Both the position numbers and the translations under genes were made by a program. Shown here in pieces: positions 13,507-46,475 of a stretch of DNA of 64,000 bases. The notes under the pieces are model-generated. The model was not told the DNA's origin, made no database searches, and saw only the letters and a list, made by a program, of their open reading frames with translations. Positions within the stretch are counted from its first letter, which is position 1, and each line of letters starts with the position of its first letter. The stretch is from Cercospora beticola. Lineage: Eukaryota; Ascomycota; Dothideomycetes; Mycosphaerellales; Mycosphaerellaceae. The stretch is from positions 2,666,001 through 2,730,000 of the forward strand of contig NC_088940.1 in NCBI RefSeq assembly GCF_033473495.1, read 5' to 3'.

Positions 13507-13613
13507 TAATATAGAAGTACACGTTCGACTTCCAACGGTGGCATTGATAAAGATCGCCGCTACTTTCTCTGTTTCTCTCACATTTCAAGTATACTTCCAA
13601 AGATCGAAAAGTT
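13507..13613 (+). promoter_or_regulatory. Displaced ancestral promoter of the secreted cysteine-rich protein gene (46044)
   Basis: The base before the left LTR is 13613 and the base after the right target duplication is 46027. If the island is removed, this stretch sits directly ahead of the ATG at 46044. It contains a TATA-like TAATATA at 13507-13513 and a pyrimidine-rich stretch with TTTCTCTGTTTCTCTC at 13564-13579, as in fungal core promoters. In the pre-insertion arrangement the TATA-like box would be about 124 bp from the ATG. The role is inferred from position. Confidence 0.5.
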
Positions 13614-13793
13614 TGTCGGTTTGGCCATGGCAGCCACCTCGCATGAACCGGAATCAGCCCTAACTGCCGGTTCTTCCGTTCCGGCAGTGGTATATAGAGC
13701 CAGCTCGTTCGCTACCTTCTATAGAATTAGACATCTTTATTATACCGACTTTGACACTTAATCGAATACCCTCTATAGAGGAGCCTACCTATA
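13614..13793 (+). repeat. Left LTR of Copia-II
   Basis: 180 bp, aligned without gaps to 45842-46021 at a constant offset of 32,228. I count 11 differences, all transitions, 10 of them in CpA/TpG context. It starts TG; its original CA end reads TA here. It carries TATATAG (13691-13697) and an 8-bp inverted repeat ACTGCCGG/CCGGCAGT (13663-13670, 13681-13688). Confidence 0.95.
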
Positions 13794-14982
13794 CTAATTA
13801 GTATAAGGTCTTTATTAATTCTTACGCAAATTAGCTAGCTAGAAGAGCGTAATTAGAACGAGGTTAAACCTACGTATAGTATCGTTAGGACCTTAATTAA
13901 CCTCTAATTATAGCTAATTCTTAGCAAAACTACGACTAGTATAGTATCTTAGTCGTATAGCTACTAAAGGGAATACTAAAACCTATATCCTTTAGATTAA
14001 TTTAATATCTATAGTACGAAGTATTAACTATACGAAAGGGGATTACCTACGTATAGTATCGTTAGGACCTCCGAGTAGCTACTACTATACCGTACGTACG
14101 TACGCGGTAATAATACTAATAATACGATAATATCGGAACTACTAGAGAAACTATAGAAGTTTAGTAATTTAATCGATACTAGTAACTAGAAGTATACCGA
14201 ACTAGATAATTAAGCGACGCCGGAAGTTATCTATAATTAGATCGTACGCTTCCTTAATAACCTTACCTTTTATTACGATAGAGCGCTATTTAAAGAAGCC
14301 GTAGATACTTTTAGCTACCTTACTAGCAAGTAATAGGAGGTAACTAATAGGCGATTACTCCGTAAACTAATTAATATACTACGCTACTAAGAAGTTCTCG
14401 TTTTAATTACTAAATAAACTCTAGTAATACGTATTAGATAGGCGCTAGAACTAGAAGAATACTAACTCTAGCTAGAAGACGAGGTAAAGCGATAACGTAA
14501 TACTCTTAGCTTTTATAAACGATTAATTTATAGCTCTTAGCGAGCTACTAAACTATAATAGTCTCGCTAATATAAGGAGCGATTAGCCTCGAGATAAGCG
14601 ACTAGTTTACTAGTACTAAGGCTAGTAGTAATAGCGATACTAGTACCTCTAGTAAGTAGCGATACGATTAACTCTAAGAACTTACTAGAATAACTAGTTC
14701 TTAGAAGCTAAGAACTAATTCTACTACTAACTAGTAACTCTAGTACTAACTCTAGTCGTACGCCTATCTATACCTCTTAGAACGAATACTCTAGCTAGAA
14801 CTAAAACTCTACTAGTAATTAAATAAGACAAACTACTATATTTCTAGAGTTTAATAAAGGCAAGGCTACTACGAATCTTAATAAGCTCTATACTAATTAG
14901 AAGAAGTACTCCGAGGCTAAATATAAGATACTAGTAACCTACCTAATTCGGTTTAATAAACGCTACGACTAATTAAGGATAC

Positions 14983-15198
14983 TATTAAATATAGGGGTCT
15001 AACCTATCTAGTTATAGTAGAATAAAGCAAAGTGAAACTCCCTATAGTAAGTAGTTAGAGAGGCTTAGGTTTCTATCTACTATAAGCCTATAAAGAAATA
15101 CTCTCTACTAAGAATTCCTAAAGCTTAAGGTACTACTTACTTAAGGCCTAACTATTAGATAGAGAGATATAGTATCTATAGAATCTTAAATCGTAATA
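14983..15198 (-). repeat. 3' LTR of the 2.3-kb element
   Basis: 216 bp, near-identical to 17103-17318; differences are transitions. Preceded by target duplication GATAC. Confidence 0.9.
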
Positions 15199-17102
15199 CT
15201 CCCTCTAATAGCCTATCTCTTAATAGCTAGTAACCTTCCTTAGTCTTATCCTCTATTATAGCAAAGGCTCTTACTTTACTTATATCTCTAAAAGCTAAGA
15301 CTATACTTCTTATAGGTTCTAGATACTAATAGCTTAATAGTAAGTATCTCTTCCCTTAATATAGAGTATACTACTTAGCTTTAAATAACTCTAAGTTATC
15401 TATCCTCTTTCTCTCTTATTATTATCTCTATATAGCTCTTATAGTATAAGCTAAATACTCTAATCCTCTCTCTAGTTTAAGTTGCCTAGGTATCCCTACT
15501 TCTTTCTCTTTTAGAATAGAAAGGATATTATTAGGTAATAAGTATAGTTAGGTATCTATAGTATCTCTAATAGATAACTAAGATTTAGGTAGGCTATTAA
15601 GTAGAACTTAGATTCTATTCTTAGGTTTAACTACCTCTACTATTACTAGCTAGGCCTCCCTTATCTTCTTCCTAAGTAATAGTAAGCTAGACTATACTTA
15701 TAATATACTCTATAAACTTGTTATTTAAAAGGTAAAGTACTACTATACTAGTTTCCTTCCTAATACTTTATTATTCTTATACTTCTTCTTTAGCTCTTAC
15801 TAGATAGCCTTTACTATCTCTTTCTCTAATACTATCTCTTTATCCTCTTTACTAATATAAAGCTAAATCTAGTAGATTACTTTATAGTTTGCCTTATTAG
15901 TTATTAGAGCAGATATTAAGGTCTTAATAGTTAAGTATAGGTCTTCTCTCTTAAGGAATATAGCTATCTTTCTAAACTATTATTCTAAGTTCTTCTTAGA
16001 GAGTACTAGATATAGTCTCTTTACTAAAGTACTATTTATCTTATCTTATTCCTATTAAGCTTATCTTCTAAAGAGTTAACTTTAGGTATATATATTACTA
16101 AGTTCTTCTAACTATAGCTAAGAAATAAATTTGTTTTATATAGTAAACTAGGACCTATATATCTTAGTATTTAGTTCTTAGTATATATATAGGTAGAAAT
16201 TCCCTTATACTAGACTATCTAGTAGAGGATTAACTATACTAAGACTCCTCTCTCTTAGCTAGAGCTTCTAGGACTCTATCTTCTAGGTAGCTCTAGAGTA
16301 GATATTATACTCTAGGCCTTATATATAGTATATATATTAATAGCTAAAGGAGTATATCTCTCTAGTACTCTCTAGTATAGGAACCTCCTAGTACTACTAT
16401 ATTTATAATAAAGGTAGGTTTATAACTCCTCTTAATCTTAGGTATATTAGTTTATCTAACTAGGTCTCTAGAGCCTAATTATCTAATCCTTCTTTAGATT
16501 CTAGAGATAGTAAGAGGTTTAGTTAGTCTCTAAAGTATTATTAGCTAATAGTAGGTCTCTCTAGAACCTACCTTATAACTATCCTAACTAAATATAACCT
16601 ACCTAGTATAAACTAATCCTCTAGCCTTATAAGATCTTTCTTTAAATAGGTAGTAAGTTCTATCTATATAGCTATCTTTAGGAGACTCCTTCTCTCTCTA
16701 ATAGTCTAACTACTCTTCTAACTTTATCCTCTTCTACTTTCTAGTAGTAGGAAATACTAGACTAACTCCTAGTATTATTAGACTATAACTTTTATTTACT
16801 AAGTACCTAGCCTAGGTATCTTATAGAGTTTATTCTCTATCTTTATATAGCTATATAGTATATCCTTCTACTTAGGACTAATATATATTAGATATCCTAT
16901 CTATCTATATATACTATTCTTTCTACTATCTAGTTTATACCTATAAGACTACTCCTCTTACTTCTAACTCTTTTATAGCTTTAGATCCTACTATTACCTT
17001 TAAGTCTCTTACTAGAGTACCTTAACTCCTACCGGGAGTACTTACTATTATATCCTCTAGCTTCTAGCTTTCTAGCTATAATATAAACCCGGGCTTATAA
17101 CC

Positions 17103-17318
17103 TATTAAATATAGAGGTCTAACCTATCTAGTTATAGCGGAATAAGGTAAAGTAAAACCCTCTATAGTAAGTAGTTAGAGAGGCTTAGGTTTCTATCTAC
17201 TATAAGCCTATAAAGAAATACTCTCTACTAAGAATTCCTAAAGCCTAAGGCACTACTTACCTAAGGCCTAACTATTAGATAGAGAGATATAGTATCTATA
17301 GAATCTTAAATCGTAATA
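17103..17318 (-). repeat. 5' LTR of the 2.3-kb element
   Basis: 216 bp, followed by target duplication GATAC at 17319-17323. The primer-binding site lies at 17088-17102 just inside. Confidence 0.9.
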
Positions 17319-18731
17319 GATACTACTATTAAGCCGTAAGGATATTATATATACTATACTTATTAGAAAAGTAGAGGAACTATAGAAGCGACGGATTATA
17401 CCTACCTCTATAACTTTTAATTAAGTATACTAACTAATCTAAGATATCTTCGAAACGCGTAACTTAAAGCTAGAATACTAATCGGAATAGCGTAATACTA
17501 CTCTAACTAAAGTTTGCTACGATAACTCTAATAAGCCGCTAATTTAGTATTTCTAAACTATATACGATAATCTAATAACTATTAAGCCTAGACTACTAAT
17601 CTTACTCTAGTACGATACTAACGTAATAAACTAGCTTATCCTTACTTACTAAGATAGGCCGGAGTATTAAGTAGTATTACTAGGTAACTACGAGTTATTA
17701 GAGGCTCTAATTACTACTATACGAACATCTATTACTACCTAGTTAAATATTAATAAAGTATAATCGTCTAACTAGTTTATTACTAATAGGCGATATAGAA
17801 GGAATACTAGTAACTCTTATAGTAACCGAAGATAATAGAATAACTACTAGATAGATAGATAGTTCTTATACGCCGGTCTACCTCTTTAAACTAGAGTAAG
17901 TAGTACGCTCTATAGATATCGGTCGAGGGAAAAGCCTTCGAAAAACCCTCGTATATCCCTTTATTTATAGCCTACGTAGCCGCTTCCTTCGCTTCTATTT
18001 TCCTTCGGATAATACTAGGTATCTAGTAAGTCCTCCTCTTACTAGACTCTATCCTTCCTTTTCTCTCTTCTCTTATTCTCCTATATCTCTTCTCTTATAA
18101 GTAAGAATTAGTCTAGGACTCCTTCTTAGATAAGCTACTTTACTATTATATATAGCTCTCTCTTTATATTAGCTAGATCCTTCTAGTTTATAGATCCCTC
18201 TACTTAGAATAGTAGGTATCTTCTCTTATTCTATTTTAGGTAGAATATATATATATATTTTAGTATCTTATATCTCTACCTATATTCGTAGTCTAGTATA
18301 AATCCTAGAACTCTTCTTTTAGTAAGGTATTACTTTATCTCTATATACTCTATCCTTAAGAGTATAACTATTATACTCTCTAGTCTAGTAAGTCCTTTAT
18401 ATAGAGTTAGTCTAATAGTAGAGAGAGTAGTAGTTTTCTATACTAGTAGTTATTCCCCTTCTACTCTTACTCTTCTCTCTTCCTTATTCCTTTCCTATCT
18501 TCTATCCTACTAATATTTAGCCTACTATACCTTATAGCCTAGGTATACCTATATCGTTATTTTATAGCCTTATACTATCTAGAGGATTTCCTCCTATCTA
18601 GTTTAGGTTAGTAGTATAGGTTGCCTAGCTCCCTTTCCTATTTATACTTACTTTTTAATCTCTCTATACCTATCTTTAATATACTAATATATAGGTTAGG
18701 TATCTTACTTTTTAGATACTTGCCTAGCTAG

Positions 18732-19137
18732 TATTATAGTTCTAACTATTATAATACTTCCTATCTAATTATTCCTAGAGACGTATAGCTACGCCTAGTT
18801 ATAGGATAAAAGAGATCTCTCTAATCTCGAAAGACTCCTCTATATATAAAGGAATAGATCTCTCGCTCTCTCGATAGAGTAATAGACCGGGTCTCTAGTA
18901 TATATAATAGACCTAAGGAAATAGAGGATTCTCCTTTATATTTAGTAGCGATAAGTATCGCTTCTCTAGATAGTTATAGCGTATAACTTACTATTCTATC
19001 TTACTAATTAGAATTAAGTAACTCTTCCTACTTCGTTACTTTCCTCTAGACTACTCGATAAGCTTAAACTCCGATCGAGCTTAAGCTTCTACTTAGTAAG
19101 ATCTTAGGTTATTAGCCTAGCGCCGATAAACCTAATA
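18732..19137 (+). repeat. 5' LTR of Gypsy element
   Basis: 406 bp, same length as 25331-25736 and nearly identical apart from transitions. Starts TATTA and ends AATA, consistent with TG...CA mutated by RIP. Confidence 0.93.
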
Positions 19138-22100
19138 GCTTTATATACTCTTAAGGATATCTACTATAGGAAGCTCTAGAAGGAATCCTACTTCTAGTAA
19201 AGTAGGATCTAGCCGTAGTAAGCTAGTTTAAGCTCTAAGACTAACTCTACCGGACGACTCTAACGATAAAGATAGTAGCCTAAGACTAAGAAGCTTTAAA
19301 CTAGCGAAGCCTAACTACTACTATAGAGACCGAAATAAGTTCGATAATTAGGTTAACTAGATAGATATATACCTTATATTTAACCTAGTCTAAGTAATAC
19401 TTAAGACTATTTTTATAAGTACGTACCTTAGAAGTAGTACTTAGAACTAGATTAAACTCTACCTTAAGGTCTACTTAGATAGCTAGAGAACTTAGGATCC
19501 TACTAGTATATTTAGAGACTATACGACCTTTAAGGCTAAGCTTAAGAAGATCTTCGGATCTTCTAACGAGGTAACCTAAGCGATTAGAGTTATCTAGTAC
19601 CTCCGATAGCGAACCTTAGTATCTAAGTATATAGCTAAGTTCGAGGAATACTTATAGGTAACTAGATAGAACTAATAGGCGTTAATAACGATATTTAGAT
19701 ATAGACTTAAAGACTCGGTTAAGGACTAGTTAATAAACTATAGAGAAATACTCGATACTCTAAAGGATTTAACCGAAGCAGCTATTAAGATCGATAACTA
19801 GCTCTACGAAAGAGCTCTAGAACGTAAGTATAACTCTAAAGTTAGAGGAATAGCCGAGTTTACTCTAGACTATAGAAGGAACTACGAATACTATTCGAAG
19901 CTAAATAACTAGTCTAATAAACTATACTATAGACTCTAACTAATAGAACTTAATATAATCTAGAAAGGTTATAGGATTAAAGGAAAAGATAAGCTAAAGA
20001 GTAGGCTAAATAAGAAATAAAGTAGTAATAAGACTTATTATAGCTATAGTAAACTAGGCTACTTTATAAGAGATTATCGTTCTAAGAATATAGTATAGCG
20101 ATAATCTATTAATATAATATAACGAAAAGAAGAAGAACGAGGAGGCTATAACGATAATTAGTCTTCTAAGAAGGTCCGACTCCTAGATATAATAACCTAG
20201 AAACGTAAAAACAAGGAAACTATAGAGGAAACTAACCGACTCGTTAAGCTTACTAGGCTACGAATCCTCCTAGATAAAATCTTATAAGAAAAGGAAGAGA
20301 TTTACCTTTAACTATAGTTCTAGGAACTTAAATAATAATAGGAAACCTTAGATAGAAGATACGATACTATCTAGGACGAACTCTAGATCCTAGAAGACGA
20401 AATACGAGAAGAAAAGCGGACGTTCGGAATAATATAGCGACGAAGTATCTCGATATAGATCTACTAGGAAGAACGTTATAGATATAGAAGCCTTTATTAG
20501 CGATTCTATTACGATAATATATACTAAATATATATCTCTTCTAAAAGAGAGAATAACTTCTTCCTAACTAAACTAACTCGAGAAGTAGATCCTCTAATCT
20601 AGTAATACGATAATAGAAGTAGGCTCTTACCTATTCTAAAGAAGCTATAAGAACTAGTACTATACTTTAGACTCGCTAAGGAAGAAACTAACGAATCTTA
20701 TTATAAAAACTAAGAAGATATCTCTTCTAAAAACGACTCCGAGAAGGAAGAATAAAACTTATCTATAGACGAAGAAGACGTATTAGAAGAATTATCTAAG
20801 GAAGAATCGGACCTAGATAACGAAATTATAATATTTATATATACCTAAGTAGGAATAATACGTAAGGTTATACTATTCCTAGCTATATAATAAGAAGATA
20901 TATTTCTAAAAATTAGTAGGAAACGATACCTATACTCTACTAAGTTTAATCGAGTACTTAAAGAGCTTCGCGTTAAGCTCTAGAACTAACTAAGAGTCTC
21001 TATATAATACGACTTTAGGTCGCTCGTATAAGAACTCGTTCCTATCGGAAGTACGATTATACTATTTAAATATATTATACCGAGTAAAGAAATCGTACCG
21101 AACTTAGTACGAGAAAGTATATACTAAATCTCCGAATAATATACTAAGATATAATAATATTAGTCGATATATACTTATATCGAAACTTTAGAAGAAAAAG
21201 CTATATACGAAATAATCTAATATACGTTATACTAGATCCGAGAATAGTATAGGATACCTACTATCGAAACCTAGTCGAGAAAAGGATCGACTTTTAAGGA
21301 ATAAGCGTCTAAAGAGAGTTCTATAATATAGAAAGCGCTTAAGTATTAATATTAGTCTTTCGTACTAATATTACTATTAATAGATATAGAGTCTAAGCTA
21401 TAATTAATTCTAGAGCGAGCAGGAACTTTGCTTCTAAATTATTCGTAAAGCGATATAGAATAGCTATCTAATCGAAGGACGAAGAGTACGAATTAATCGT
21501 AGTCGACGGATTATCGTTACTAAGTATAGAACGAGAAACTATTCTATTACTACTTACTATCTAATAGTACTATAAGGAAATTATCTTAGATATTACTAAT
21601 ATAGCTAGTTATAACGTTATACTAGGTATACTTTAGTTAAGAAAGTATAATCTAATTATCGATTAGAGACAAGGAGTACTTAGGTTTAAATAATACGATT
21701 ACGTTATCGATATTAACTCTATATAGCGATAGCGTTTACTAATAGATAAAGCTAGGAGATAGATTAACGAAATAATACTCTAGTCGCTCGGAGCTACGAA
21801 ATAATCGAGTCTAACTCGGATAGTTACTTATAATAGTAAGGAGGATAAATAAGTTACGAGAACGGATAGAAGTAATATACTATCGAAGGATATAGCCTCG
21901 GAACTCGATATCTCTAAGGAGTATTAAAAATAGGCGAGACTCTTTAAAGAGATAAAGGATATTACTACTTTACTTAAATACTAGATATAGAATTACCGGA
22001 TTAACTTAAAACTCGGAACGGAGCCTCTATTCGTACTACTATTTAAGAAATCCGAATACGCGCTCTAAGAAGAAGATAAGTAGCTACGTAAGATACTAGC

Positions 22101-25100
22101 TAAGAACTAGATATATAAATCTAGGTCTAGTATAGGCGTACCTATCTTCGGTATTCTAAAGCCTAATAGGAAGATACGAATCGTCGTTAACTATAGAAAG
22201 CTTAACGATATTATAATTAAGAACCGATATCTACTACCTAATATTAAGGAATTATAAGATAGACTTACTAAATTAGACTAGTATACGAAAATCGATCTAC
22301 GAGACGCATTCGATACTATCTATATAGTAGAAGGCGAAGAATAGAAGATAGCGTTTCGAATATACTACGGATTATACGAATTTATAGTTATACTAATAGG
22401 ATTAACTAACGCGCTAGCCTCCTACTAGAAGATAGTAAACGATATTCTTAGAGACCTACTCGATATATACGTTATCGTATATATAGATAATATTCTCGTC
22501 TATACTAAAGGATCTCTTAAGAAATATAAATAATAAGTATAAGGCGTATTCGAAAGACTCTCCTAAGTAGGATTCTAGACCGTACTCGAAAAATACGAAT
22601 TCTATAAGAAGGAAGTTAAGTTCCTTAGCTTTATTATTAATATAAAAGGAATCGTAATCGACTCGGAAAAAATCGAATCTATTAAGATATAGCTAACTCC
22701 GAAAATAGTTAAGAATATATAATTATTCCTTAGACTAGCTAACTATAATTAGAAGTTTATTAGAGATTATTCTAAGATTACTATACTACTATCGGACCTT
22801 ACGAAGAAGGACCTTAAATAGAAATAGGAATAGTAATATTAAAAAGTATTCGATAAGCTAGTATAGATATACTACGAAGTACTAGTACTAATAATATTTA
22901 ATATAAAGAAGCTAGTCTTTATCGAGACTAACGTATCGGATCTAGCTATAGGAGTATACCTTACGTAGATATATAATAGGAAAAGATACCTAGTAGCTTA
23001 CTACTTAAGAAAGATATTACCTATAGAATAAAACTATAATATCTATAATAAAGAATTACTAGCTATCGTTATAGTATTATAATACTAGAACTACTATATA
23101 AAAGGAGTACTAGGACTAACGATTCTTTCTAATTATAAGAATCTAACCTACTTTACTACGACTAAAGTACTAACTTATAGATAGGCCTACTAGTCGGAAC
23201 TACTCGGATAGTATAAGTTCGAAATCTACTATACTCTAGGAAAAGAGAATAGTAGAGTAGACGCCTTAAGTCGAAGAGTCGACTATATAGAAGGAAAAGA
23301 ACCTATATAATAACGCGTTCTTAAGGCTAATCCGGACGGAAGCCTTAGTACTAATACTTAAGAGTTTAATAATATAGTACGAATCCTTAACGATACTAAG
23401 AAGTAGTTTCTAATACTATAAGGCAAATACTAGGTACTAAAGAACCGAGAAGAAGAATATATATAATAATATTATAACGATCTCTCGAGAGGATACTTAG
23501 GAGTAACTAAGACTATAGAACTTATCTAGAGAAGTTTTAGCTTTCTATAAATATAATAAAAGGTACTTAAGTATATTAAGCGCTACGAGTATTACTAAAG
23601 AAATAAAGCCGAATAATATACTAAGTACGGATATATATAGTTTAGGACTCTACTATAATAACCTTAGAACGAAGTTACTATAGACTTTATTACGAAACTC
23701 CTACTCTTAAAAGATAGAATTAACGATACTATATTCGATATAATTATAGTTATAGTCGATAGACTTACTAAATATATATACTTTATACTTATAAGCGAAA
23801 GATATATAGCAGAGCAACTCGGATACCTCGTAATAGATAGGCTAGTATAATACTACGGATTCCTAAAAATCTTTATTACTAATAGAGATAAGTTATTTAC
23901 GTTAAACTACTAGAAAATACTAGTCGGAATAATTAGAATTAAGTATAAGCTATCTATAGCCTATTACCTAGAAATAGACGGCTAGATAGAGAGAACGAAT
24001 TAAATACTAGAGTAATATCTCCGATACTACGTTAATTACGTATAAGATAACTAGGTTATACTACTCCCTATAGTATAAATAGTACTTAATAACTATAAGT
24101 TAGAGACTACGTAGGCTATACTATTCTTCGCGAATTATAGACGAAATCCGAACCTATTTAGAGACCTATATAGTTATCTCTAAGCTAAGAGAGTAATAGT
24201 TGCGATATAAGATATAAAAAATATCTATAAGTAACTCGAAAATCGTATTTAAGACTTATAAAAAACAATTACTAAATCTAGATAAGATAAAAGAAAAATA
24301 GTACCTTAGCTTAAGAAGAGAAATAAGGTCTATCTTCTTACTAAAAATTTAAAGACGAGAAAAAAGACTAAGAAATTAGATTATATTAAGATCGGACTAT
24401 TTTTAATCGACGAAGTTAGAGGACTAGTTAATTACCGACTAAGACTACTAAAAGACGTAAAGATCTACTTAGTATTCTACGTATTACTATTAGAACCTAC
24501 TAACGCCGAAACTCTATACTAAGAAATATTCTACTTCTAATCTAAAAAGGAAGACGAGTTCGAAATCGAAAAAATTCTAGACTATAAGAATTAGAAATAC
24601 CTTATTAAATAGAAAGGATATCCGGAATCGGATAATACCTAGGAACTAAGAACGAACCTTACGAATTGCTAGCCGCTCCTTATACGGTTCTATTAATAGG
24701 CTCTACTACGACGCTATCGAGAAAACTCTAAAAGATAGAGTCTATAGAACTATCTATAGCGCTCTAAGTTAGAGAACTAAGCGCGAGGCTAGACGAGTCT
24801 CCGAGAGTAAGAAGAACGCCCGCCTACTCTATAGTATACTTCTCTTCCTCTATCTTCTCGAGCTCTTACTCTTTAAGAGTACGACTAGCCTCTATCTTCT
24901 AATCTAAGATATCTAGCTACTACTATAGACGTATTTCTTTCGTATACGCTTTTATAAGCGTATCTTTCGCCTAGTCTAACTCCGATAGTAACTTCTTATA
25001 TTACTTCCCTAAACGCTCCTACTTAGAATCTATTATCTACGTATCGTATCTCTTCGTATTACTAGTATAATAGTAGGAATACTTCCTCGACGAAATATAA

Positions 25101-25736: not shown

Positions 25737-25767
25737 GCTAGGTCCTAGGTATATAAATAGAGAGGAG

Positions 25768-34400: not shown

Positions 34401-36729
34401 ATCCTAATTTTAAGATAGGTAAAGAACTATAGATATTAATAGAAACTAGAGATAACTTTTAGAGTTTCCTTTTAGTTTCTTTCTCTCTATATTTCTTTAT
34501 TTTTACTAAGAAATATACTCTATAAGGTTAGTATTCCTTTAGAATAGGAATCTAAGCCTTTAAGTTAGATACCTTATATAGGTTTCTAAGAAGACTCTCT
34601 CTAAAATATATAAGTCTCCTATACTAAAGCTTCTACTATTCTTAGGTCTTTTCTTAGACTTTAAAGATATAGACTTTATTCTCTTATTTTTAATTAAAGT
34701 ATAATATTATAAGCTTCTATAATATATTATTAATCTCCTTAATAAATAGTACTCCTTCTAATAGTTTTATCTAAATAACTAGTTTTCTAGATAACGAAAT
34801 AAGTATAAATTTTAGTAGTTAAATACTATACTACTAGCTAAATTAGCTCTAAGAAATAAGATTTACTCCTAGACTAGGTATAAAGAGAATATTCTTAAGA
34901 ATAATCTATTTTCCTTTTTTCCTACCTATTACTATATTTCCTATATATATAGCTATTAGATAGCTATTTCTAACCTTAATCTACTTTTTCCTCTAAAGAG
35001 GTTTTAGTTCCCTAAAAAGTAATTCTTAGTTAGTTATATATAATAAAGTATAGGAGTTAAGTAGCTATCTTAATAGTATATACTTGCCTTTTACTTCTAT
35101 AGTTAAGTATATAACTTTATTAATATTATTATCCTCTAATAGAGATTAAGATACTTTAGATACTATAGAAGGTTCTATATCTTCTTAGATAGTATATACT
35201 TTCTTAGAAAACTTCTTTAAGGTTTATCTCTTCTTAAGAGATTAGACTTTTAAGTTAAGTTTCTTTACTATTTCTTTTAATACTTCTCTATCTAGTAAAG
35301 ATCTTCTTCTAAATATACTCTCTCTAGGTAGTATTCTTCTCTTCTCTACTCTACTAGCCTATCTTAAGTTAATAGTTCTCTTAGCTTTATTAAGATATAG
35401 ATACTTAGTAATACTTCTAAAATACTCCTCTTTATAGAGATAGTATTTTAGCTTTTTGCTTTAGATCTCTCTTCTTTTAGCAAATATTACTATTTCTTAT
35501 AACTAGTATCTATACTATATTAACTCCTCTACTTTAAGGAGTTAGAGGATTTCTTTAGAGTCTAAGTCCTTCTAAGCTTAGATAGTCTACCTTATACTCT
35601 TATACTTAGCTAGGAGTATAAAGAGTAGATACTTAATCCTTATATTAGGAGTCTTATAGTATAACTCCCTCTAGTTAATCTCTATAATCCTCCTTCTAAG
35701 ATTACTAAGATAGACCTATAATTTCCTAATTATATCTTCTAGTTCTATCTTAAAGGTTATAAATTCTTAGATAATAGCTATTATATATACCTATTAGACT
35801 TTGCTATATTTCCTATATAGCTTTATCTAGATATTATATACTCTTATCTTATCTATTACTTTATTTTAGTTATCTATATAAAGACTTTCTATTAGAATAT
35901 AGATTGCCTTTATATTATCCTTCTACTATTTTAGGCTAAACTCTAAAAAATATAGTGCCTTTCCCTTTACTTAATAAAGCTTTAGATACTTTAGATTTAG
36001 CTAGAGTAAGTACTAATAATCCCTTTAAGTCTAAGATTATCTAGAAGATTTCTTTTTCTCTAAGTATATTCTCCTATAGCTTAAACTATAGTCTCTAGTT
36101 CTCTCTTATTAGGATTAGTATTCTCCTCCTATCTAATTTACTTATTAAATCTATTTCTATAAAATTAAATAAATAAATCTAAACTCTAGAAATATAAGCT
36201 CTTTTAATCTAATTAGTAGCTTCTAGATTTCTACCTTCTCTAGTTACTAAAACTCTTCTCTTTTAGCTAAGGTATCTAAGGACTTTTCTTTCTTATAAAA
36301 GTTAGTTAGGTTCTTAGGTAGAGAACCTCTAAAAGATCTACTTTCTTAGAAAAGTACTACTAGCTAGTTCTAAGGTATTAGTAGTACTTAGTACTTAGGC
36401 CTAGTCTTATCTACTTAGGTACTATAGTCTAAAGCTAATCCTTTCCTCTTTATACTCCTTTAGTATACCTCTCTTTTAAAGTAGAGTATACTTTACTAGA
36501 CTTTTCTCTATCTTACTTACTCTTTAGAGACTTCTAGCTTATAACTAGGATCTTCTAAAGCTTTAAAGTAGTATAGATAGAATATGTCTCTAGTCTCTCT
36601 AGTACTCTTTTCCTACTTCTCTACCTAGTTAATACTATAGGTCCTATAAGAGGTAATACGTATTACTTTAAGGATAAGAAGGCTAACTCTTTCTACTTAG
36701 AGCCTCTCTATAAACTCGGGCTTATAACC
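31474..36729 (-). pseudogene. Copia-I gag-pol remnants
   Basis: Minus-strand coding region of Copia-I with RT and RNase H motifs recognisable near 32.47 and 31.83 kb. It is dense in stop codons and almost devoid of CpG as well as CpA/TpG, unlike the Gypsy element. The last few hundred bases of the element continue on the far side of LINE copy A (26397-25998). Confidence 0.8.
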
Positions 36730-36959
36730 TATCGAATTATATTCTCGTAGGTACTCGTCGGATAGGTATAATATAGTAGAAGTAGAGATAATAAGTAGGA
36801 ACTAACCGAGTTAATTATATTAGTTAGTTATAAGTTATATTTTACTCCTAAGATAGGTATTAGCTAGGTTATATAACCTAGTATTATATAACCTATATTA
36901 CCTAATCCTAATTTCTAAAGTATCTCTTAGAATATCTAACTAGACTATACTTTCTAATA
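36730..36959 (-). repeat. 5' LTR of Copia-I
   Basis: 230 bp; followed by the target duplication AGGAG at 36960-36964 where LINE copy B resumes. Confidence 0.92.
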
Positions 36960-39900
36960 AGGAGTAATATTTGCTTCTCTCTCTAGAATAGCTATTATAA
37001 CTAACTTATATACTTCTATAATACTCCTTAGGGCCTCTCTCTAGATCTTCTTAATAGGTTTAGTAAGGTTCCTATAGTAGCCTTATATACTCTCTAGGTT
37101 AGACTAGACTTAGTAGCTAAAAGTAATAGCTAGTCTTACTACTACTATATAGAGGTACCTTACTTTTTAGAAGAATACTCCCTATATAGACTTATATAGT
37201 CTCTAAAGTAATTATATTTAGTAGGCTCTCTTTTCTACTACTTATTTAATATATAGGCCCTATTTAAGTTTAGTATCTACCTAAACTCTAAGGAGTCTAA
37301 GTAATAGTAGTAGTTCTCTATTAAATCTCTAGATTTAGACTATAGCTTTAAGGTTATACTTCCTACTTCTAGTAAAGTAGATTAGCTAGTATTTCTATAG
37401 TATAAATTCTACTCTATATCTCCTTACCTATTCTTTATATTTCTAGTAGGCTTTCTTAAGTTACCTATAGTTATTCTCTATTAATATACTATATATAAGG
37501 ATATTAGAGTTATCTATAAACCCTATTACTAAAGTAGTCTCTTTATATAGTATTAGGAGTAGAGTAGAGGTAAAGAAGAGGAAGAGAATTAGAGATAGGA
37601 TAGAGCCTTAGGGAATTCCTATATTTTAGAGCCTTAGTTAGTCTATAAATTCTCTAAGCTTTAGGCAGGTAGTCCTATCTTAGAGGAATAATTAGATAAA
37701 GCTAATAGTATAGTCTAGGAAGCCTTTTATTCTAATATTATAAAGTAGCCTCTAGTAGGAGACTTTATTAAATACCTCTAAGATATTAAGGTAGAGTATA
37801 GATACTATAGCTCCTAGCTTAGTTTTCTAGATAGTTTTTACTTACTTAGTAATAAGGTCTAATACTAAGGTAGTAGACCTACTAGGCCTAGTATCTATTT
37901 ATTCTTCTAGAAGGAGCTTCCTTTCTTTAGTCTTCTTAGATATCCTTTTAGTAACTATAGCTTCTAGGGCTTTTACTATTATATTAAGTAGAGTAATAGG
38001 TCTATATACTCCTAGCTTTAAGTAGTCTAGCTTCTATAGTTTCCTAAGTACTACTATTATAGAGTGCTTAAAGGCTTTAGAGTAGTATACTATCCTTAGG
38101 TATATAGTAAAGAGTTTAGCTAGGATTAGGGAAAGTTATTCCCTATACTCTTTAAGTAAGAGGTTTAGTATTTAGTTAGGTCCTAGGGCCTTATTACTAG
38201 GTAGTTTCCTAAGGACTCCTTCTACCTCCTTTAGTTAAACCTTAACCTCTATCTAGAATTAGAGTAGTAGTTAGGTATATTAGATATCGCTTAAGTCTAC
38301 CTCCCTTAGGTCTAGGAAGAAGTATCGTACTAGGATTATAGCTTTCCTCTTATTAGTATCTCTATTATACTCTATATCTTCTAGGCTTAGGAAGTATAGT
38401 AGTTAGTACTCTTAGTTAGCTTCCTCTCTAGCCTATTTAGCTATTTTCTAGATTTTCTTAGAGTCCTCTATAACTTCTTTTATTAGTCTTCTCTAAGCTA
38501 GGTTCTACTCTCTCCTTATAACCTTACTTCTTATATATAATGCCTCTAGGTATAGCTTATAGCTCTATTCTATCTTAGAGTTCCTCTATTCTCTTCTCCT
38601 CCTTTTTACTAGCTTTATAGCCTCCTTATATTCCTAGGTCTATACTATTTTTATATAGCTTAATAGTCTAGCTATTAGAACTATCTCCTCTATAATTCTC
38701 TAGATAGAGGATTATATTCTATAGGCTAGTATATCTAGGTATTCCCTTATATTAAGTAGAAGTTAGTTAAGTTAGTTAGTATTTTAGGCTATAAGGTTCT
38801 AGATTCTATCCTAGTTAGTAGCTTTCTACTACTTTCTCTAGCTTCTTCCTCTTAGTCTCTAGAAGTTAATATAGAGAGTTATCCTAAAAGAGATATAGTT
38901 AGAGCTATATATCTCTTCTAGGAGAGCTTTATATTCTTAGATTAGGTTTTAGAGAGAGAGGCTAATAAAGACTAGGTCTAGTATTTAGTAGCTAGCTATA
39001 TATCTTTCCTATATAATTATTTCTAGCTCTAGAGCTAGCTATAGTTAGGCCTCTATAATTGTTTTAATAAGCTTATCTACTATAGTATATTAGGTTTAGG
39101 TTATATTTCCTCTCTATTCTAAGTAGTAGAGATTAAAGTCTCCTACTACTATATAGCTTACTTTTATGTCCTCTAGAGTTTATAATAGTACTTCTTAGAG
39201 TATAGGGATAGTCCCTTCTTATCTATAGCTTATAGGCTCTAAGGAGTTATAGTAGTTATAAATAGAGATAGTTCCTATAGGTATCTAGACTTAGATAGTT
39301 ACTAGGTCGCTTATATTATAGAAGATTAGTTTCTAGCTATTAGTTCTAACTTTATCTAATACTAGTATTACTACTCTTAGGTTCTACTAGAGTAGGAGAA
39401 CTATAGAGTATTCTTTCTTAGCCTTAGTCCTACTATTTATAGTATTAAGCTATAGTTCTTATAGTACTATTACTATAGCCTCTTCTATAGCTTAGCTATC
39501 TAGTAGTAGAGTTTAGGTAGTATTTAACCTATTAATATTATATTAGTAGATTATTAGAGTTTAGCTACTTATAGGATTCTTAGGATTCTTAGAAAAGAAG
39601 CTTAATTAGGTTAATATCTATATCTTCCTAGAGAGTGCTTATTACCTTTTAGATATCCTTATTCTCCTATATAGAAGGAAAGTAGAGCTTACTTACTTGC
39701 CTCCTACTAGCTATTACTATTACTATAGTACCTAGAGGCCTACCTTTATACTTAATATCCCTCTATAGAGACTTAGCTAGTAGAGCTTTCCTTTTAAGGA
39801 TTAGAGGTTCTATAGTACTATCTTCTTATATTAGGCCTAAAGCTACCTCCTATTACTTTTTAAACTACTCTAAGAATGCTCTTACTTTAGCTTTTATAGT

Positions 39901-41032
39901 AGCTTTATAGCTATATTAGAAGGAGTATACTTTATAGTCTCTCTTATAGTTATAGTATTTAATTTTCTTCTCCTTATAGCTATCTATCCTATACTTCTCT
40001 ATATAGTTTCTATATATTTCTTCTATAGCTTTATAGTAGGTAGTAATATACCTAAAGCTATTATACTTAAGGTATTATATAATCCTCTACTATAGGTAGT
40101 ATAGTTCTACTATATACTATATTAACCTAATAGTAATACCTCTCCTATATATTTCTCTTATAGTCTATCTATCCTATACTACTATTACTACTAATAAGAA
40201 GTTAGTCTCTTCTCTTGCTCTCTAGTTCTTAAGCTAAAAGGCCTTCCTAATTTTAAGCCTATCTAGGAACTAGGTAAAGTTATCTTAGTCGAGCTAGATC
40301 TAGCTATTTATATCCTCTAGCTTCTAGGATATTCTAATACTATATATAATTACCTAGGTACTTAGTATTTCTACCTAGGCTTCTAGGTATATAGCCTTAA
40401 GCTAAGATTAGTCCTTCTCTAGCTTACTTTTCTCTCTTTCTCTATAGAGGATAACTTTAAGGTCTCTACTTAGGAGCTTTTATATAGCCTTAAACTATTA
40501 TACTCCTAGTTTCCTTCTAAGCTCTTTATAGCTTATCTTCTTTACTATCTCTCTTTCTTTTTAGTTTCCTATCCTTACTAAGATAGTTATAGATACCTAA
40601 GGCTAGAGCCTTAGTATTATATATCTAAATTAGGCTATCTAGGCCTATATTTTAGAAGTAGTAGTAGTAGGTATTAGGCAGCTCTAGAGGGTTTTCTAGA
40701 TAGCTTAGAGAGTCTAGGACTCTTCCTAGCGGAGGGCGAAGTAGAGGAGAGCCTATTAGGCCTATTAGAAAAGAAGAAGAGTTAGAGAGAGAGAAAAAGT
40801 TATCTAGATATCGAGGTAACTCTAGATCTATTCTATAAGTATTTTTAGGTTCTTTTAGATTATTAGTTTTAGAGTATTAGTATTAGTAGTTATTTTCTAG
40901 CCTTATTAGCTAGAGAGAGGTAGTTATAAGCGGATTTAGGCCGCCTAGGAGTTAGAGTTATAACCTCCTTCTCCTAGGCTCTCTCCTCTACTCGTAGCGT
41001 TATAGTATCGGTCGGAGAGTATTATTACGTAT

Positions 41033-41054
41033 TAGGAGGCCTCGAGGCCTCCTA
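41033..41054. repeat. 22-bp perfect palindrome in LINE leader (copy B)
   Basis: Same 22-bp palindrome as at 26462-26483, unmutated although surrounding bases differ by transitions. Confidence 0.95.
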
Positions 41055-41132
41055 CCGTCGTCGTCGTCGCCTACTAGAGCGCGTTTATATTTTTATTATC
41101 TTTAATATTACTATTATTAGAATAACTACTAG

Positions 41133-44100
41133 TAACGATAACTATAGAAGAAGTACTTTATCTATAATAAACTAGATTATTAGTTAAGTAATTATATACG
41201 CTAAGAACGTAATAAGATACGAGAATAGTTTACTAAGAATAATTAAGTATACCGCTAGTATCTTCTTAATTATAAAGACGAAGGATTACCTAATAGCGAC
41301 GACGATTCTAACTAATTAGATAGCTAATAATTCCTTATAGAGTTTAGTACTATTATACTAGAGATAGCAAAAATAATACTTTTAGCGCTATTAGATAATT
41401 CTACCTATTATACCTTTACTCTATACGATCTATTTACTAAGCTATCTACTATAGTTCTAATTAAGTAGATCTTTATAGCTAATCGCTATTCGAGCGCTAT
41501 ATTCTAAAGTATCTTACCTAATACCGGAGCCTCTAGCGTATTAACTACTAGAATTAATTAGGTTAAAGCTCTATAGCGATTAAGGCCTAAAATTAAGCTT
41601 AACTAGTCGATATAAGATACTTACTATATTAAATTCGGAGCTAGTAACGCCTTCTTCTTAGAATCTATCGTCGTACTAATACTATTCGGAGATATCTAGT
41701 TCGAGGCTATTCTAACTAATATACCGTTCCTCTAGTATATATAAGATATAGATAAGCTTAATATTATACTTAATAACTAGAAGAACCTACTAATCTAAAG
41801 CGAATATAAAGTTACTATACCTATCGTTTATAAATAGAGTTACTTTTAGCTATTACTCGACGAATATACCTACTTAGCTATATATAACTTCTCTAAGGGC
41901 GAGTTAAGAACGCTATACTACCGATTCGGCTACTTCTCTATTAATAAGCTAGCTGCCGTACTAGACTAAATTAGTACTAAATACGATAAGTATACTCTCT
42001 AGCGTATTACTAAGTACTATAAGTTATACTAATTCTATAGATAAGTACCTAGGTAATTTAAATTTATTCTCTATAACAATAATATTAACTTTAATATAGA
42101 GGTTATCGTTAATATTATATACCTCGGATAGCCTAAACGACTAGTTCTATACGTCGTTAATATAGCTACTACTTTCTAAGCTATACGATTCCTATCTAAT
42201 ATAACTACTAAGATAGTTTAGAATGCCTTATATACCTACTAGATTAATATCTATTAAGGGCTACCGGAACGTATTATCTATAACGCTAGTACTAACTTCT
42301 ATACGGACGAATTCTAGTAGTATATAGCGACTATAGATATTACTACTAAAGAGATACCTATAGAGGTATATAATAGTATTAGTAAGGTCGAACGATACTA
42401 TATACTACTACGACGAGCGTTCGATATTATTAAAGTAGAAACTAACCTTCCGAACGATATAGTATTATAAATAGCTATTAAGGCTATTAATAATACTACT
42501 AGCTCTCGAGGTTTAGTACTAACCTTACTAGTATTCGGTACCTATCTACGACTACTATTAATAAGTACCTCTACGCCGGATATTAAATAACGAGCTTTCG
42601 CTATCTATAAGGCTATAGCTAAACTTAAATGCCTTTAATTAGAACGTTTAATCCGTAATACTCTAAATACTCGTAATAGCTCTAATTTACTCGTAGTAAA
42701 GAAACTACTACTAGGGGATAAGATACTCGTTTAGCGTAAATTAGGTTAATAGACTAGCCCTTACCTACTAAACCGTATTAAGAACGAAGACTATACTATA
42801 GAGTTACCTAGTAGACTAACCCGATTTAGAATTATCTTAGTTAAGCTATACCTAAGTAACGATAACGAGATAGAGGTAGAGGCTTATAACTCCGAATATA
42901 ATTAACTAGAACCTAATAATAACGATAGCGATTACGAGCTAGAACCTCCGATAGTACTATAGAAACGTAGAAGGCTAAAAGAATTAAAGAATAAGCTAAA
43001 ACTAATACTAGTAGAAGCGACTACTATAGTTAATACTAAGGAATATCGTACTATAGACGAATTAATTAAACTAAGAGCTACTAAGGTTATTATAGAACTA
43101 GGCCGTCTATTTAAAGTATTAACTAAGGTAGAGATTAAAGGGCTAATTAACCGAGTTATTATATTTAAACCTTATAACTAATAGAGGTATAGTAACTACC
43201 GACTATTTAAATTACGTATAGTTTATAAGGTTAAGAAACGTAGTAACGGATAACTCTACGAGAAATTAAGGCTTATTATTTAAGGATATAACGACTATAA
43301 TAAGGAAACGATTCTAATATAGTTACCGATAATCTAGCGAGTATTATAGCGAGTAATTATTAGCCTAGCTACGAGTCTAATTAAGCAAGGTTTTACGCTA
43401 GAATTACGCTATATTAGCTAAGCGTATACCTAGTTAACTACTAAACTAAACCGAGTCGTTTTAGTATTATTACCTAAAGAACTAGAACGCGACTACTATA
43501 GAATAATTATAAGAGTCGTCCTACTACTCTATAGACTAGCAGAATTAGGTACCTATTAGTTTAATACGTATAGTAACTACTATAAGGACAAACTCTATAT
43601 AGTAACTAGCTCGTTTAATCTATACTTACTAATTACTACCTCGGAATTACCTAGAACTAGAATTGTCGGAATATAAACCGATAATATACTAATCCTTACT
43701 AACTAAGAGTTCTAGTATATAGAGGCTAAATACCTTATATTTATAAGTAAACCTAAGGAACGACTAATAGCTAATACGCTCTTAACTTTTAATAGATATA
43801 CTATATTACTAGATAACGATAATATCTATATTATACTAAAAGGATAAGATAAATAACTTAGCTTTATTTATAACGTCGATAGCTATATAGTATAACGAGT
43901 ACGAGGTGCTTACCTAGCGTCTATATATTAACTAGAAGCTACTTTTAACCTCTTAGTAGTAGCTTAATTAAAGATACTAACCTCTAATAATATTAAGGCT
44001 CTTAATAAGCGAATCTAATAGCAAATAAATAACCTTAACTATAGATTAATATATAAACTACTAAATCTTAATTTAATAGCGTTATATATTTTCGTTAATA

Positions 44101-44563
44101 GCTTATTCGCTAATAATAAGGACTTCTCGTTATAAATCGGTTACCTAATCGTTATTAGTATAGAGTTAATAGCTACTACTTCCTTTACTCTTATTAGTAA
44201 TATCGTCTATTAGAGCTTAACTAAGAGTAAACGCGTAATATACTTAGTTCTTATATCGGAGATATATACTTTAAGCTATAGTATTAATATAGCGTTTAGT
44301 ATTAATACTACTCTATCTATTATCCTCTAGCGACTAAATAAGCTAGTATTACTATTAATCGTCTATACCGACTTACTCTCGCTTTACGAATATATAGTTA
44401 AGCTAGGTACTACTAAGGAGAAACGCTTAATAATCGATATTATAGTACTAAAGCAGATATATAAAGCTAGAGAAATTTATAAGATACGCTAGATTAATAG
44501 AACTACGAACTCTACTAATACTATAACTAAGATAATACCGAATAAGGCCTTAATAACTCTTAT
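41133..44563 (+). pseudogene. Copia-II pol remnants (integrase, RT, RNase H)
   Basis: The host element resumes after LINE copy B. Reading the plus strand gives a fungal Copia polyprotein: protease/integrase region with a readable core around 42300-42440 (Lys-Glu-Ile-Pro-Ile-Glu-Val-(His)-Asn-Ser-Ile-x-Lys-Val-Glu-Arg-Tyr), RT with Gln/stop-Thr-Asp-(Asp)-x-Leu-Ile-Leu near 43665-43700, and RNase H near 44095-44560 with Ser-Leu-Tyr-Glu and Thr-x-Glu-Lys-Arg-Leu-Ile-Ile-Asp. The frame is cut by stops. The RNase H C-terminus continues past the LINE-tailed insertion at 45646-45720. Confidence 0.85.
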
Positions 44564-44577
44564 TAATTAAGGAACTA

Positions 44578-45631
44578 CCTGCGAAGTCCTATTATATACC
44601 TCTACGCGGTCGTAGATAGAAATAGATAGCTTCGGCTATACTAGCAAAGTGTAGGGCGGCTAGGCACCTATAGAGGTAGGAAGAAGGCGACAAAAAGTCT
44701 AGAATTTCGACCTAGGGAGACTAGAGAGCTCCTAAGAATACGAAGACGACGCTAGCGCGGCATAACTACTATAAGATTCTAATACTCGACTATAGGACAG
44801 CCCTTCTAGGTAGTAAATACTACTATAGGTCTAGAGGCTAGAGTAGTAACCTAGGCTCTAAATAGGCTAAAGAGGAGGAACTAAGTATACCTAAGGGAAG
44901 GCTTTAATAAGAAAGAGCAAGGATAGTAGAAATAGAAGAAAGGAATAGTAGTACCTCTATAGACACTAGGACAATTAGCTACTAGGAGCCTTTTATCTAA
45001 ATAGGAGACTCTAGGGCAGACTAGTCCTCTACTCTAGAGCTCTCTAGAAACCTTAAGTCTAAAGGTAGAGTATCTAATATAAGCTATCTAACTCTATACT
45101 ATACTTAGAGCTGCCTATAAAGATACCTACTACTACTATTCTAGATATTCTATAAAAACTAGAATTTCTCTAGATATAGATTATATAACTAGATACTAAG
45201 GAAGGTTAAAATCTAAGTAGGATTTATATAGGGAGATACCTACTCTAGGAACTAGCAAGAAAGAGTTAGATATAGGATTAATATAGATACTAGTATAGGG
45301 ACAAAGACTATATATATAGGCTAGAGTCCCTAAGCTAGTAGGCAAGAGGATCGGGCTCCTAAGTACTTAGTAATATAAGAAATAACTAAGGAAAACTATA
45401 TTATAAAGGATCTAATAAACTATTAAGATAATATAAATTGTCCTAAGGAGAACTAGAAACTACGGAAGCGGTAGGCTATATAGAGCTTACTATAAAATAT
45501 AAAGATATAAGGGGGTTTTTCTGCCGGAGTACTAGTACGAGGGCTTTTCTACCTACGAAAAATATAGGGCGTGCTGCTTACTCTAGTTAAAAGAGGTAGA
45601 CTAGCGTATAAGAGTTATCTATCTATCTATC
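44578..45631 (+). mobile_element. LINE-tailed non-autonomous element, about 1.05 kb
   Basis: Flanked by a 14-bp target duplication TAATTAAGGAACTA (44564-44577 and 45632-45645) within the Copia-II RNase H region. Its last 60-70 bases (GTGCTGCTTACTCTAG..., Lys/Arg-poor non-coding) and (TATC)n tail match the 3' end of LINE copies A and B, while the rest (44578-45500) does not obviously resemble the LINE and shows no RT motif. This looks like a SINE-like or internally deleted element that uses the LINE machinery through a shared 3' end. A diverged LINE with a different interior is the alternative. Confidence 0.75.
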
Positions 45632-45720
45632 TAATTAAGGAACTATAACATATAGTATCTAAGGATAGGTTAAGAGATAAATTAACTCGGTAAGGCGATT
45701 CGAATTCGGTAAATTAAAGA

Positions 45721-45841
45721 CGATTTAGAATAGAGAAGTAGCCACCGGCTAATTACAAGCCAGAGAAAGGCTATCAACTGTTAGAGGCATTGTTTTATTG
45801 CGTTTTTAGGCGAGTTCATGCGAGAAAAGAGAGATTGCTAG
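45721..45841 (+). other. Copia-II 3' untranslated region with polypurine tract, not RIP-mutated
   Basis: About 120 bp between the RNase H remnant and the right LTR. CpA and TpG dinucleotides are normal here, in sharp contrast to the RIP-mutated bases before it. Purine run at 45820-45834 serves as polypurine tract. Confidence 0.6.
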
Positions 45842-46021
45842 TATCGGTTTGGCCATAGCAGCCACCTCGCATGAACCGGAATCAGCCCTAACTGCCGGTT
45901 CTTCCGTTCCGGCAGTAGTATATAGAGCCAGCTCGTTCGCTACCTTCCATAGAATCAGACATCTTTATTATACCGACTTTGACACTTGATCGAATACTCT
46001 CTGCAGAGGAGCCTACCCACA
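45842..46021 (+). repeat. Right LTR of Copia-II
   Basis: 180-bp partner of 13614-13793; ends in CA and is followed by the duplication AAGTT (46022-46026). Only 22 bp separate its end from the ATG of the secreted-protein gene. Confidence 0.95.
45919..45925 (+). promoter_or_regulatory. TATA box of the Copia-II LTR, candidate promoter for the gene at 46044
   Basis: TATATAG preceded by the GC-rich hairpin CCGGCAGT. It lies 125 bp upstream of the secreted-protein ATG, so transcription started by the LTR would run straight into that gene in sense orientation. Whether it is used is inference. Confidence 0.5.
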
Positions 46022-46043
46022 AAGTTTGAAACCTTTCAAAAAA

Positions 46044-46475
46044 ATGTATCGAAGCGTCTATGGAATCGTTCTCCTGCTGGGTGGCATTTTTCACGGTGTA
46101 CAAGCGGCACCTAATCTCCAGCACAATATCGATAGCCGTGCGCAGCCAGACAGAGTTACTCCAACCCACGGGTGAGCCTAATCCTTGGAGCGCCTTTTTC
46201 GTCGTTATAATATCTGTGCTCATCAATGATCTGGCAGCTACTGGTGCGAGAAAGGGAACCTGGTAAGTCTTTCCTTCTCCTTCAACTACAATGATATCGT
46301 GGCCTTCGATTTTTAATGACTGTTCGTGCGACAGGTTATCATCTCGGGATCCATACGAGATGAGAAGCCATGTGGTGGAGATAATGGTCAGTGTTGCTCG
46401 ACGAGCCCCGATCATACTAAGGGGGATTGTTTGACTTGTCATGCGGTTCATGGCTGTCCCGGGAATTGTCCATGA
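46044..46475 (+). CDS. Small cysteine-rich secreted protein (candidate effector), 97 residues
   Basis: No named family recognised. Three exons: 46044-46171, a 25-nt exon 46238-46262, and 46335-46475. Introns of 66 nt (GTGAGC donor, CTCAT branch) and 72 nt (GTAAGT donor, AATGAC branch). Only this splicing keeps the frame open through to the TGA at 46473. Residues 1-21 form a signal peptide (Leu/Ile/Val core, cleavage expected after Gly-Val-Gln-Ala). The mature part of about 76 residues has 8 cysteines, at 46, 64, 71, 72, 83, 86, 92 and 96, i.e. C-X17-C-X6-CC-X10-C-X2-C-X5-C-X3-C, enough for four disulfides; the segment 64-96 is Gly/Asp/Pro-rich. ATG has AAAAAA ahead of it. It sits directly beside the RIP island, a typical place for fungal effector genes. 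Effector function is inference; a secreted antimicrobial or surface protein is possible. Confidence 0.75.

What the first reader, a model, noticed from the sequence alone, without database searches (positions are those of the whole stretch)
13507..46044. A 32.4-kb retroelement island separates the secreted-protein gene from its promoter
The island is flanked by AAGTT duplications at 13609-13613 and 46022-46026, so before insertion base 13613 was followed by 46027, 17 bp before the ATG. The stretch before 13614 has promoter-like features (TAATATA at 13507, pyrimidine tract). The gene stayed open even so. It may be silent, or be driven by the LTR whose TATA box (45919) is 125 bp upstream in sense orientation.
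Basis: partly seen in the sequence, partly recalled or inferred. Interest (0 to 1): 0.9.

Follow-up and report, generated by a model that had tools for sequence, protein, structure and literature searches.

The report
Nested transposons displace a secreted-protein gene
In what is most likely the sugar-beet leaf-spot fungus, a small secreted-protein gene appears to have been cut off from the DNA that probably switched it on by a jumping element that landed 17 bases before its start and then grew to 32 kb through further insertions; the case is well preserved, but its kind is already known from other fungi.

Summary
One LTR element (5,751 bp in four pieces) inserted with a 5-bp duplication, AAGTT (13609-13613, 46022-46026), 17 bp before the ATG at 46044. 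The 32,408-bp island can be read as this founder plus six later insertions, each with its own target-site duplication. The outer LTRs belong to one element: a 5.7-kb copy elsewhere in the genome lacks the window's insertions and has its own duplication. Inside, RIP-type mutation (C to T at CpA) is near saturation: 166 CpA/TpG in 32.4 kb. It fades towards both outer junctions and does not reach the gene. The gene is open: three exons, 97 aa, signal-peptide-like start, 8 cysteines, identical to Cercospora beticola CB0940_08878, the only relative found. The native upstream DNA, probably promoter plus part of the 5' UTR, now lies 32 kb away. The 3' LTR, in sense, with TATATA at 45919 and no ATG between 45950 and the gene, is the nearest candidate promoter. 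Silence versus LTR-driven expression cannot be decided without RNA data. The kind is known (UhAvr1 in Ustilago hordei, MFS1 in Zymoseptoria tritici). Less usual are the readable nesting record and the RIP-spared LTR rim next to unique DNA.

The parts
13223..13613 (+). probable native promoter and start of the 5' UTR of the secreted-protein gene, between the last stop of the upstream open frame (NUDIX gene region) and the insertion; TAATATA at 13507
   Evidence: 13001-13613 has one match in the genome, itself; TAATATA rare, pyrimidine tract not; function inferred
13609..13613 (.). left copy of target-site duplication AAGTT
13614..13793 (+). 5' LTR of the founding element (180 bp, TG start intact, CA end reads TA)
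13614..14982 (+). founding LTR element, piece 1
   Evidence: collinear with L033, L034, L037, L039; boundaries
14983..17318 (.). nested LTR element E1, 2,336 bp, terminal direct repeats of 217 bp, TSD GATAC
17319..17850 (+). founding LTR element, piece 2
17851..41115 (-). LINE-like element B (5,068 bp in three pieces: 17851-18731, 25737-25767, 36960-41115), tail (TATC)n, 17-bp TSD with 1 mismatch, itself interrupted by E4 and E5
   Evidence: LINE type inferred from tail and TSD, no RT row there
18732..25736 (+). nested LTR element E4, 7,005 bp, repeats about 410 bp, TSD GCTAG, RVT_1 at 22153-22638 (Gypsy-type by inference)
25768..36959 (-). nested LTR element E5 (6,145 bp without LINE-like A), repeats 230 bp, TSD AGGAG, RVT_2 at 32260-32958 on the minus strand (Copia-type)
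26413..31459 (+). LINE-like element A inside E5, 5,047 bp, 14-bp TSD TATATAAGCTAGAG
41116..44576 (+). founding LTR element, piece 3
44577..45632 (+). LINE-like element C, 1,056 bp, shorter than A and B, tail (TATC)n, 12-bp TSD AATTAAGGAACT
45633..46021 (+). founding LTR element, piece 4, with purine run 45822-45834
45842..46021 (+). 3' LTR in sense towards the gene; TATATA at 45919; outer half hardly touched by RIP
46022..46026 (.). right copy of target-site duplication AAGTT
46044..46475 (+). small secreted cysteine-rich protein gene, exons 46044-46171, 46238-46262, 46335-46475, 97 aa, 8 Cys; identical to C. beticola CB0940_08878
   Evidence: no Pfam hit at E up to 1, no PDB hit at E up to 1

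Best explanation
An LTR element of about 5.75 kb, with no coding domain detected and therefore probably non-autonomous, integrated in sense 17 bp before the ATG of a small secreted-protein gene, most likely inside its 5' UTR (shown: duplication, collinearity, position; inferred: UTR). It then served as a landing site for six further insertions: LTR element E1, LINE-like B and shorter LINE-like C in the founder; Gypsy-type E4 and Copia-type E5 in B; LINE-like A in E5. The whole carries RIP-type mutation close to saturation, which fades towards the outer junctions and spares the gene (shown). The gene kept its reading frame but lost contact with its native upstream DNA by 32.4 kb (shown as geometry; that this DNA was the promoter is inferred). 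I think it most likely that it is now silent or nearly so in ordinary growth, because it abuts a long AT-rich repeat block of the sort that is usually heterochromatic (recalled, inferred). Any residual transcription would start in the spared half of the 3' LTR (inferred). Anatomy about 0.97, displacement of the native promoter about 0.85, near-silence about 0.55.
For: TSD and LTR ends; a TSD for each of seven insertions whose pieces tile the island (the tiling itself follows from how the boundaries were set, the evidence is in the duplications and repeats); the 5.7-kb unit elsewhere with its own TSD, and solo LTR L009 with CAAGT on both sides; RIP profile; open gene model equal to a deposited protein; left flank single copy. 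Precedent for near-silence: a 5.5-kb LTR-element insertion whose breakpoint lies 115 bp before the start codon of UhAvr1, transcript at most 10% (PMC4081816, passages).
Against: No expression data. An open frame with normal CpA content beside a RIP-saturated, six times invaded island could mean that the gene is still used. No empty site from a relative could be examined. The pyrimidine tract is not rare. The boundaries of E4 and E5 were fitted within a few bases to find their duplications, and chance 5-mer agreement inside the AT-rich island is 0.004.
Confidence: 0.7

Rival explanations
1. Promoter capture: the 3' LTR drives the gene. Transcription starts about 30 bp after TATATA (45919) and reads through about 94 nt of leader into the ATG.
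For: LTR in sense, TATATA at 45919 (0.02 per 391 bp in the flanks); no ATG in 45950-46043; outer LTR half largely spared from RIP. [quoted passage not shown] tritici was shown by gene replacement to cause overexpression (PMC5656749, passages).
Against: No RNA evidence; the block behind it is RIP-saturated and probably heterochromatic; the founder has no coding domain detected, so activity of its LTR is unknown; by my own rough estimate, no ATG over 94 nt has a chance of about 0.2.
Confidence: 0.3
2. The gene does not depend on the left flank, or is not a real gene: it is transcribed from a start within 46022-46044 or not at all, or the coding strand is the minus strand (open frame 45888-46514).
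For: One database hit only; antisense stop-to-stop frame of 208 codons.
Against: Two short introns with canonical ends, signal-peptide-like start, 8 Cys; the same 97-aa product is deposited as CB0940_08878, though that record may rest on the same isolate and on prediction alone.
Confidence: 0.1
3. The outer LTRs come from different insertions joined by recombination, so the flanks were never neighbours.
For: Two of 10 LTR units in this genome (C3, C5b) have non-matching ends, so such rearrangements may occur.
Against: Exact AAGTT match; four founder pieces in order, together 5,751 bp against about 5.7 kb for the C5 unit.
Confidence: 0.02

Closest known systems
UhAvr1 of Ustilago hordei (PMC4081816; passages seen)
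   Same: LTR retrotransposon sequence between promoter and an intact small secreted effector gene; the paper reports synteny broken 115 bp before the start codon
   Different: Basidiomycete, single 5.5-kb insert, expression and phenotype measured; here 32 kb, seven insertions, RIP-saturated, 17 bp before ATG, nothing measured
MFS1 promoter LTR insert of Zymoseptoria tritici (PMC5656749; passages seen)
   Same: LTR of a retrotransposon upstream of a gene of a related plant-pathogenic fungus (relatedness recalled); the authors think the LTR drives the gene
   Different: [quoted passage not shown] here a full element with nested load
RIP-affected repeats of ascomycetes (PMC7882544, listing and start of abstract only)
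   Same: C-to-T mutation of repeats
   Different: Fading of RIP inside the outermost LTRs was measured here; whether that paper treats it I did not check

Membership tests
LTR retrotransposon (founder) | two direct terminal repeats with TG...CA ends | tested here: met
   180-bp repeats 13614-13793 and 45842-46021, outer TG and CA intact, inner ends TA
LTR retrotransposon (founder) | short fixed-length target-site duplication | tested here: met
   AAGTT here; 7 of 10 units exact (others AGGGG, AAAGA, GCACG, CATGG, CAAGT, GGTGA), 1 with one C/T difference, 2 not matching
LTR retrotransposon (founder) | primer-binding site and polypurine tract | tested here: inconclusive
   purine run 45822-45834 read by eye, 7 nt short of the LTR; primer site not tested
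LTR retrotransposon (founder), autonomous | gag-pol coding domains | tested here: not met
   no Pfam hit in pieces of 41115-44572 (both strands) and 13792-14981 (six frames), with one positive control, RVT_1 in E4; no RVT_1 or RVT_2 row in founder pieces. rve also gave none, but it gave none in E4 or E5 either, so that is uninformative. Heavy RIP could hide domains; 17319-17850 and 45633-45841 were not given to Pfam
Repeat-induced point mutation | CpA/TpG depletion with TpA excess in repeats and not in unique neighbours | tested here: met
   166 CpA/TpG in 32,408 bp; 63-79 per 500 bp in the 11 flank stretches shown; TA/AT 1.39-2.82 within 14001-45500
Repeat-induced point mutation | dependence on RID/DIM-2 machinery and the sexual cycle | not tested
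   no search made
Small secreted cysteine-rich effector candidate | signal peptide, small size, cysteines, lineage-specific | tested here: inconclusive
   97 aa, 8 Cys; hydrophobic start judged by eye only; one hit in a search limited to relatives that share exact words
Small secreted cysteine-rich effector candidate | expressed in the host and acts on it | not testable with these tools
   no RNA or assay data
Transposon displacement of an effector promoter (UhAvr1 type) | insertion between promoter and intact coding sequence | tested here: inconclusive
   geometry met; that the displaced flank is the promoter is inferred
Transposon displacement of an effector promoter (UhAvr1 type) | changed expression relative to an isolate without the insert | not testable with these tools
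   no isolate comparison or RNA data

The most novel reading that the evidence does not exclude
Where an LTR element borders unique DNA, RIP in this fungus fades before the edge and leaves an outward-facing LTR promoter alive at the rim of an otherwise dead island. A RIP-saturated block can then keep, or newly give, expression to the gene next door; here the secreted-protein gene has swapped its native promoter for such a rim promoter.
Probability: 0.15. Interest if true: 0.6.

Novelty: new member of a known kind. Interest (0 to 1): 0.35.

Why it matters
It is a cleanly readable case of how a repeat island is built beside a candidate effector gene: the nesting of seven insertions (a partial order) can be read from their duplications, and the gene's own state can be tested directly by RNA mapping. 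The fading of RIP at the LTR edges next to unique DNA, seen at the 20 edges examined, warns that LTR divergence is a poor clock for such insertions and raises the testable question whether rims of RIP islands act as promoters.

Tried and rejected
Different-insertion origin of the two LTRs: rejected on TSD and collinearity. Promoter-targeted integration of this LTR family: of 11 other insertions, 3 have the start of an ORF of at least 110 codons within 200 bp of a junction (which printed at most the four longest ORFs per side; for two of the 11 only one side was examined). With a cut-off of 80 codons further ORFs come close, and no random control was made, so this is inconclusive and not claimed. 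Copying of the family without reverse transcription: suggested at first because 5 of the 10 other left LTRs examined are 97-98% identical to the window's left LTR while its own partner is 95%. Against a simple rule, the other five are 76-94% and one right LTR (L005) is also 98%. Position-dependent RIP explains it better. LTR clock: 7 of 8 core differences are CpA-type, so no date is given. Exon 3 alone found nothing, probably because full-length relatives fall outside that tool's length limit. Exon 3 in the own genome: only itself. The bacterial-type promoter scan does not apply to a fungus. Whether the gene is the avirulence gene AvrCR4 mentioned for this species (PMC12034460, section 11 read) was not tested; I had no sequence of it.
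Full report
Organism. The window is contig C6:2666001-2730000 of a 36.07-Mb genome in 10 contigs. A large neighbouring ORF is closest, apart from itself, to a Cercospora zeina protein (71%). The spliced 97-aa product of the gene at 46044 is identical over its full length to hypothetical protein CB0940_08878 of Cercospora beticola, the only hit at E up to 0.1 among 2 candidates (that search sees only relatives sharing exact words). I therefore take the genome as C. beticola. The strain is not known, and the deposited protein may come from the same isolate, so it is not independent evidence of conservation.

The observation. Two LTRs of 180 bp, 13614-13793 and 45842-46021, are bounded outside by AAGTT at 13609-13613 and 46022-46026. 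The aligned 174-bp core is 95% identical, with 8 transitions and no transversion, 7 of them in CpA/TpG context. The chance that two random 5-mers of the flanks agree is 0.0012. The ATG at 46044 is 17 bp beyond the right duplication.

One element, not two. Comparison with other copies shows the founder in four pieces (13614-14982, 17319-17850, 41116-44576, 45633-46021; 5,751 bp in all). They are collinear with a unit of about 5.7 kb on C5 that lacks the window's insertions and has AAAGA on both sides. That unit carries an LTR fragment of about 170 bp of its own and is shorter near its right LTR. I compared 10 LTR units, paired by proximity: 7 exact duplications (window, C7, C5c, C5a, C1, a solo LTR on C8, and a 46-kb unit on C8, the last read), 1 with a C/T difference (C8b), 2 without match (C3, C5b).

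The rest of the island. I divide the remaining 26,657 bp into six insertions (the pieces adjoin by the way they were drawn, so the evidence lies in the repeats and duplications, not in the sum): E1 (LTR element, TSD GATAC), LINE-like B (17-bp TSD, 1 mismatch), E4 (LTR element, GCTAG, RVT_1 match at 22153-22638), E5 (LTR element, AGGAG, RVT_2 match at 32260-32958 on the minus strand), LINE-like A inside E5 (14-bp TSD), and shorter LINE-like C (12-bp TSD). The ends of E4 and E5 were fitted within a few bases; chance agreement of 5-mers inside the island is 0.004. The deepest nest is founder > B > E5 > A; the order among E1, B and C is unknown. LINE is inferred from the (TATC)n tails and long, variable duplications; no row or 28 falls in A, B or C. 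The founder gave no Pfam match in the pieces tested, while the same method found RVT_1 in E4, and no RVT_1 or RVT_2 row falls in it. The rve search listed only 12 places in the genome and none in the window, so it says nothing. The founder is probably non-autonomous, with the reserve that RIP may hide domains.

RIP. The island holds 166 CpA/TpG in 32,408 bp, against 63-79 per 500 bp in the 11 flank stretches outside it. The family has 40 LTR matches in the genome, 30 of them fetched. I examined 20 edges next to DNA that is not RIP-mutated, 11 left and 9 right. The fetched copies not used are the solo LTR L009, which served as reference, and nine that lie wholly or mostly inside RIP-mutated DNA, several of them mutated throughout (for L018, see the alignment). 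The sparing therefore belongs to edges with unique DNA, not to LTRs as such, and my choice of edges favours it. Mean CpA/TpG per 50 bp inwards falls 9.6, 3.6, 2.6, 0.5 at left edges and 6.7, 3.4, 3.9, 5.8, 3.4, 2.1, 1.2 at right edges, part of which is the LTR's own composition; one right edge (L005) stays rich to about 400 bp. Site by site, left LTRs keep 132 of 153 in their first 90 bp and 24 of 83 in the rest, right LTRs 80 of 123 and 63 of 70. Hence LTR divergence is no clock here.

The gene. Exons 46044-46171, 46238-46262 and 46335-46475, introns of 66 and 72 nt with GT...AG ends, 97 aa, 8 Cys, hydrophobic start judged by eye. No Pfam family, no PDB relative, no second place for exon 3 in the genome. 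CpA/TpG content in 46001-46500 is normal (71 per 500), so RIP has not visibly leaked into it.

What it does. The left flank is single copy in a search of 13001-13613. It holds TAATATA at 13507, rare in the flanks (0.01 per 391 bp, a motif picked after the fact), and a pyrimidine tract that is not rare (82 of 617 stretches). With 17 bp left between duplication and ATG, and fungal leaders commonly longer (recalled), the insertion probably fell within the 5' UTR. The 3' LTR points at the gene, has TATATA at 45919, and leaves no ATG between 45950 and 46043. Either near-silence or LTR-driven expression fits. I favour near-silence (0.55) over LTR capture (0.3), from the RIP-saturated neighbour and the UhAvr1 case, in which a 5.5-kb insertion with its breakpoint 115 bp before the start codon left at most 10% of the transcript (PMC4081816, passages). 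The MFS1 case in Z. tritici shows the opposite outcome, overexpression from an LTR insert (PMC5656749, passages).

Print. The gene name occurs in no paper of the library. Three papers hold CB0940 names; I saw passages of one (PMC12034460), where the name is that of another gene. A search for C. beticola with LTR retrotransposon and RIP gave one paper, on Pseudocercospora; its passages name C. beticola as a comparison species. A search on avirulence genes with an inserted retrotransposon gave none. I found no paper describing this insertion in searches; of most papers in those listings I saw only the listing, and papers outside the library were not searched.

Noticed in passing
LTR edges in L002-L031; window 13614-13793 and 45842-46021: At the 20 edges next to unmutated DNA that were examined, RIP fades out before the junction; left and right LTRs are mutated mainly in opposite halves, which spoils LTR-clock dating. 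Edges were chosen, so this needs an unbiased repeat.
   Followed up: partly
window 48146-49048, minus strand: Cytidine-deaminase-like ORF matching Pfam Inv-AAD (E 3.1e-48) about 2 kb from the RIP-saturated island.
   Followed up: no
window 7376-9754, plus strand: Het-C heterokaryon-incompatibility gene (Pfam E 3.6e-231).
   Followed up: no
G000 C3:244460-272767 and C5:4799936-4810600: Two LTR units of the family whose outer duplications do not match, suggesting recombination between copies or wrong pairing.
   Followed up: no
L009 (G000 C8:252107-252286): Solo LTR of the founder family with CAAGT on both sides, little RIP-mutated, between flanks of normal GC.
   Followed up: partly
window 45888-46514, minus strand: Open frame of 208 codons antisense to the gene and running into the LTR; probably chance.
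   Followed up: no
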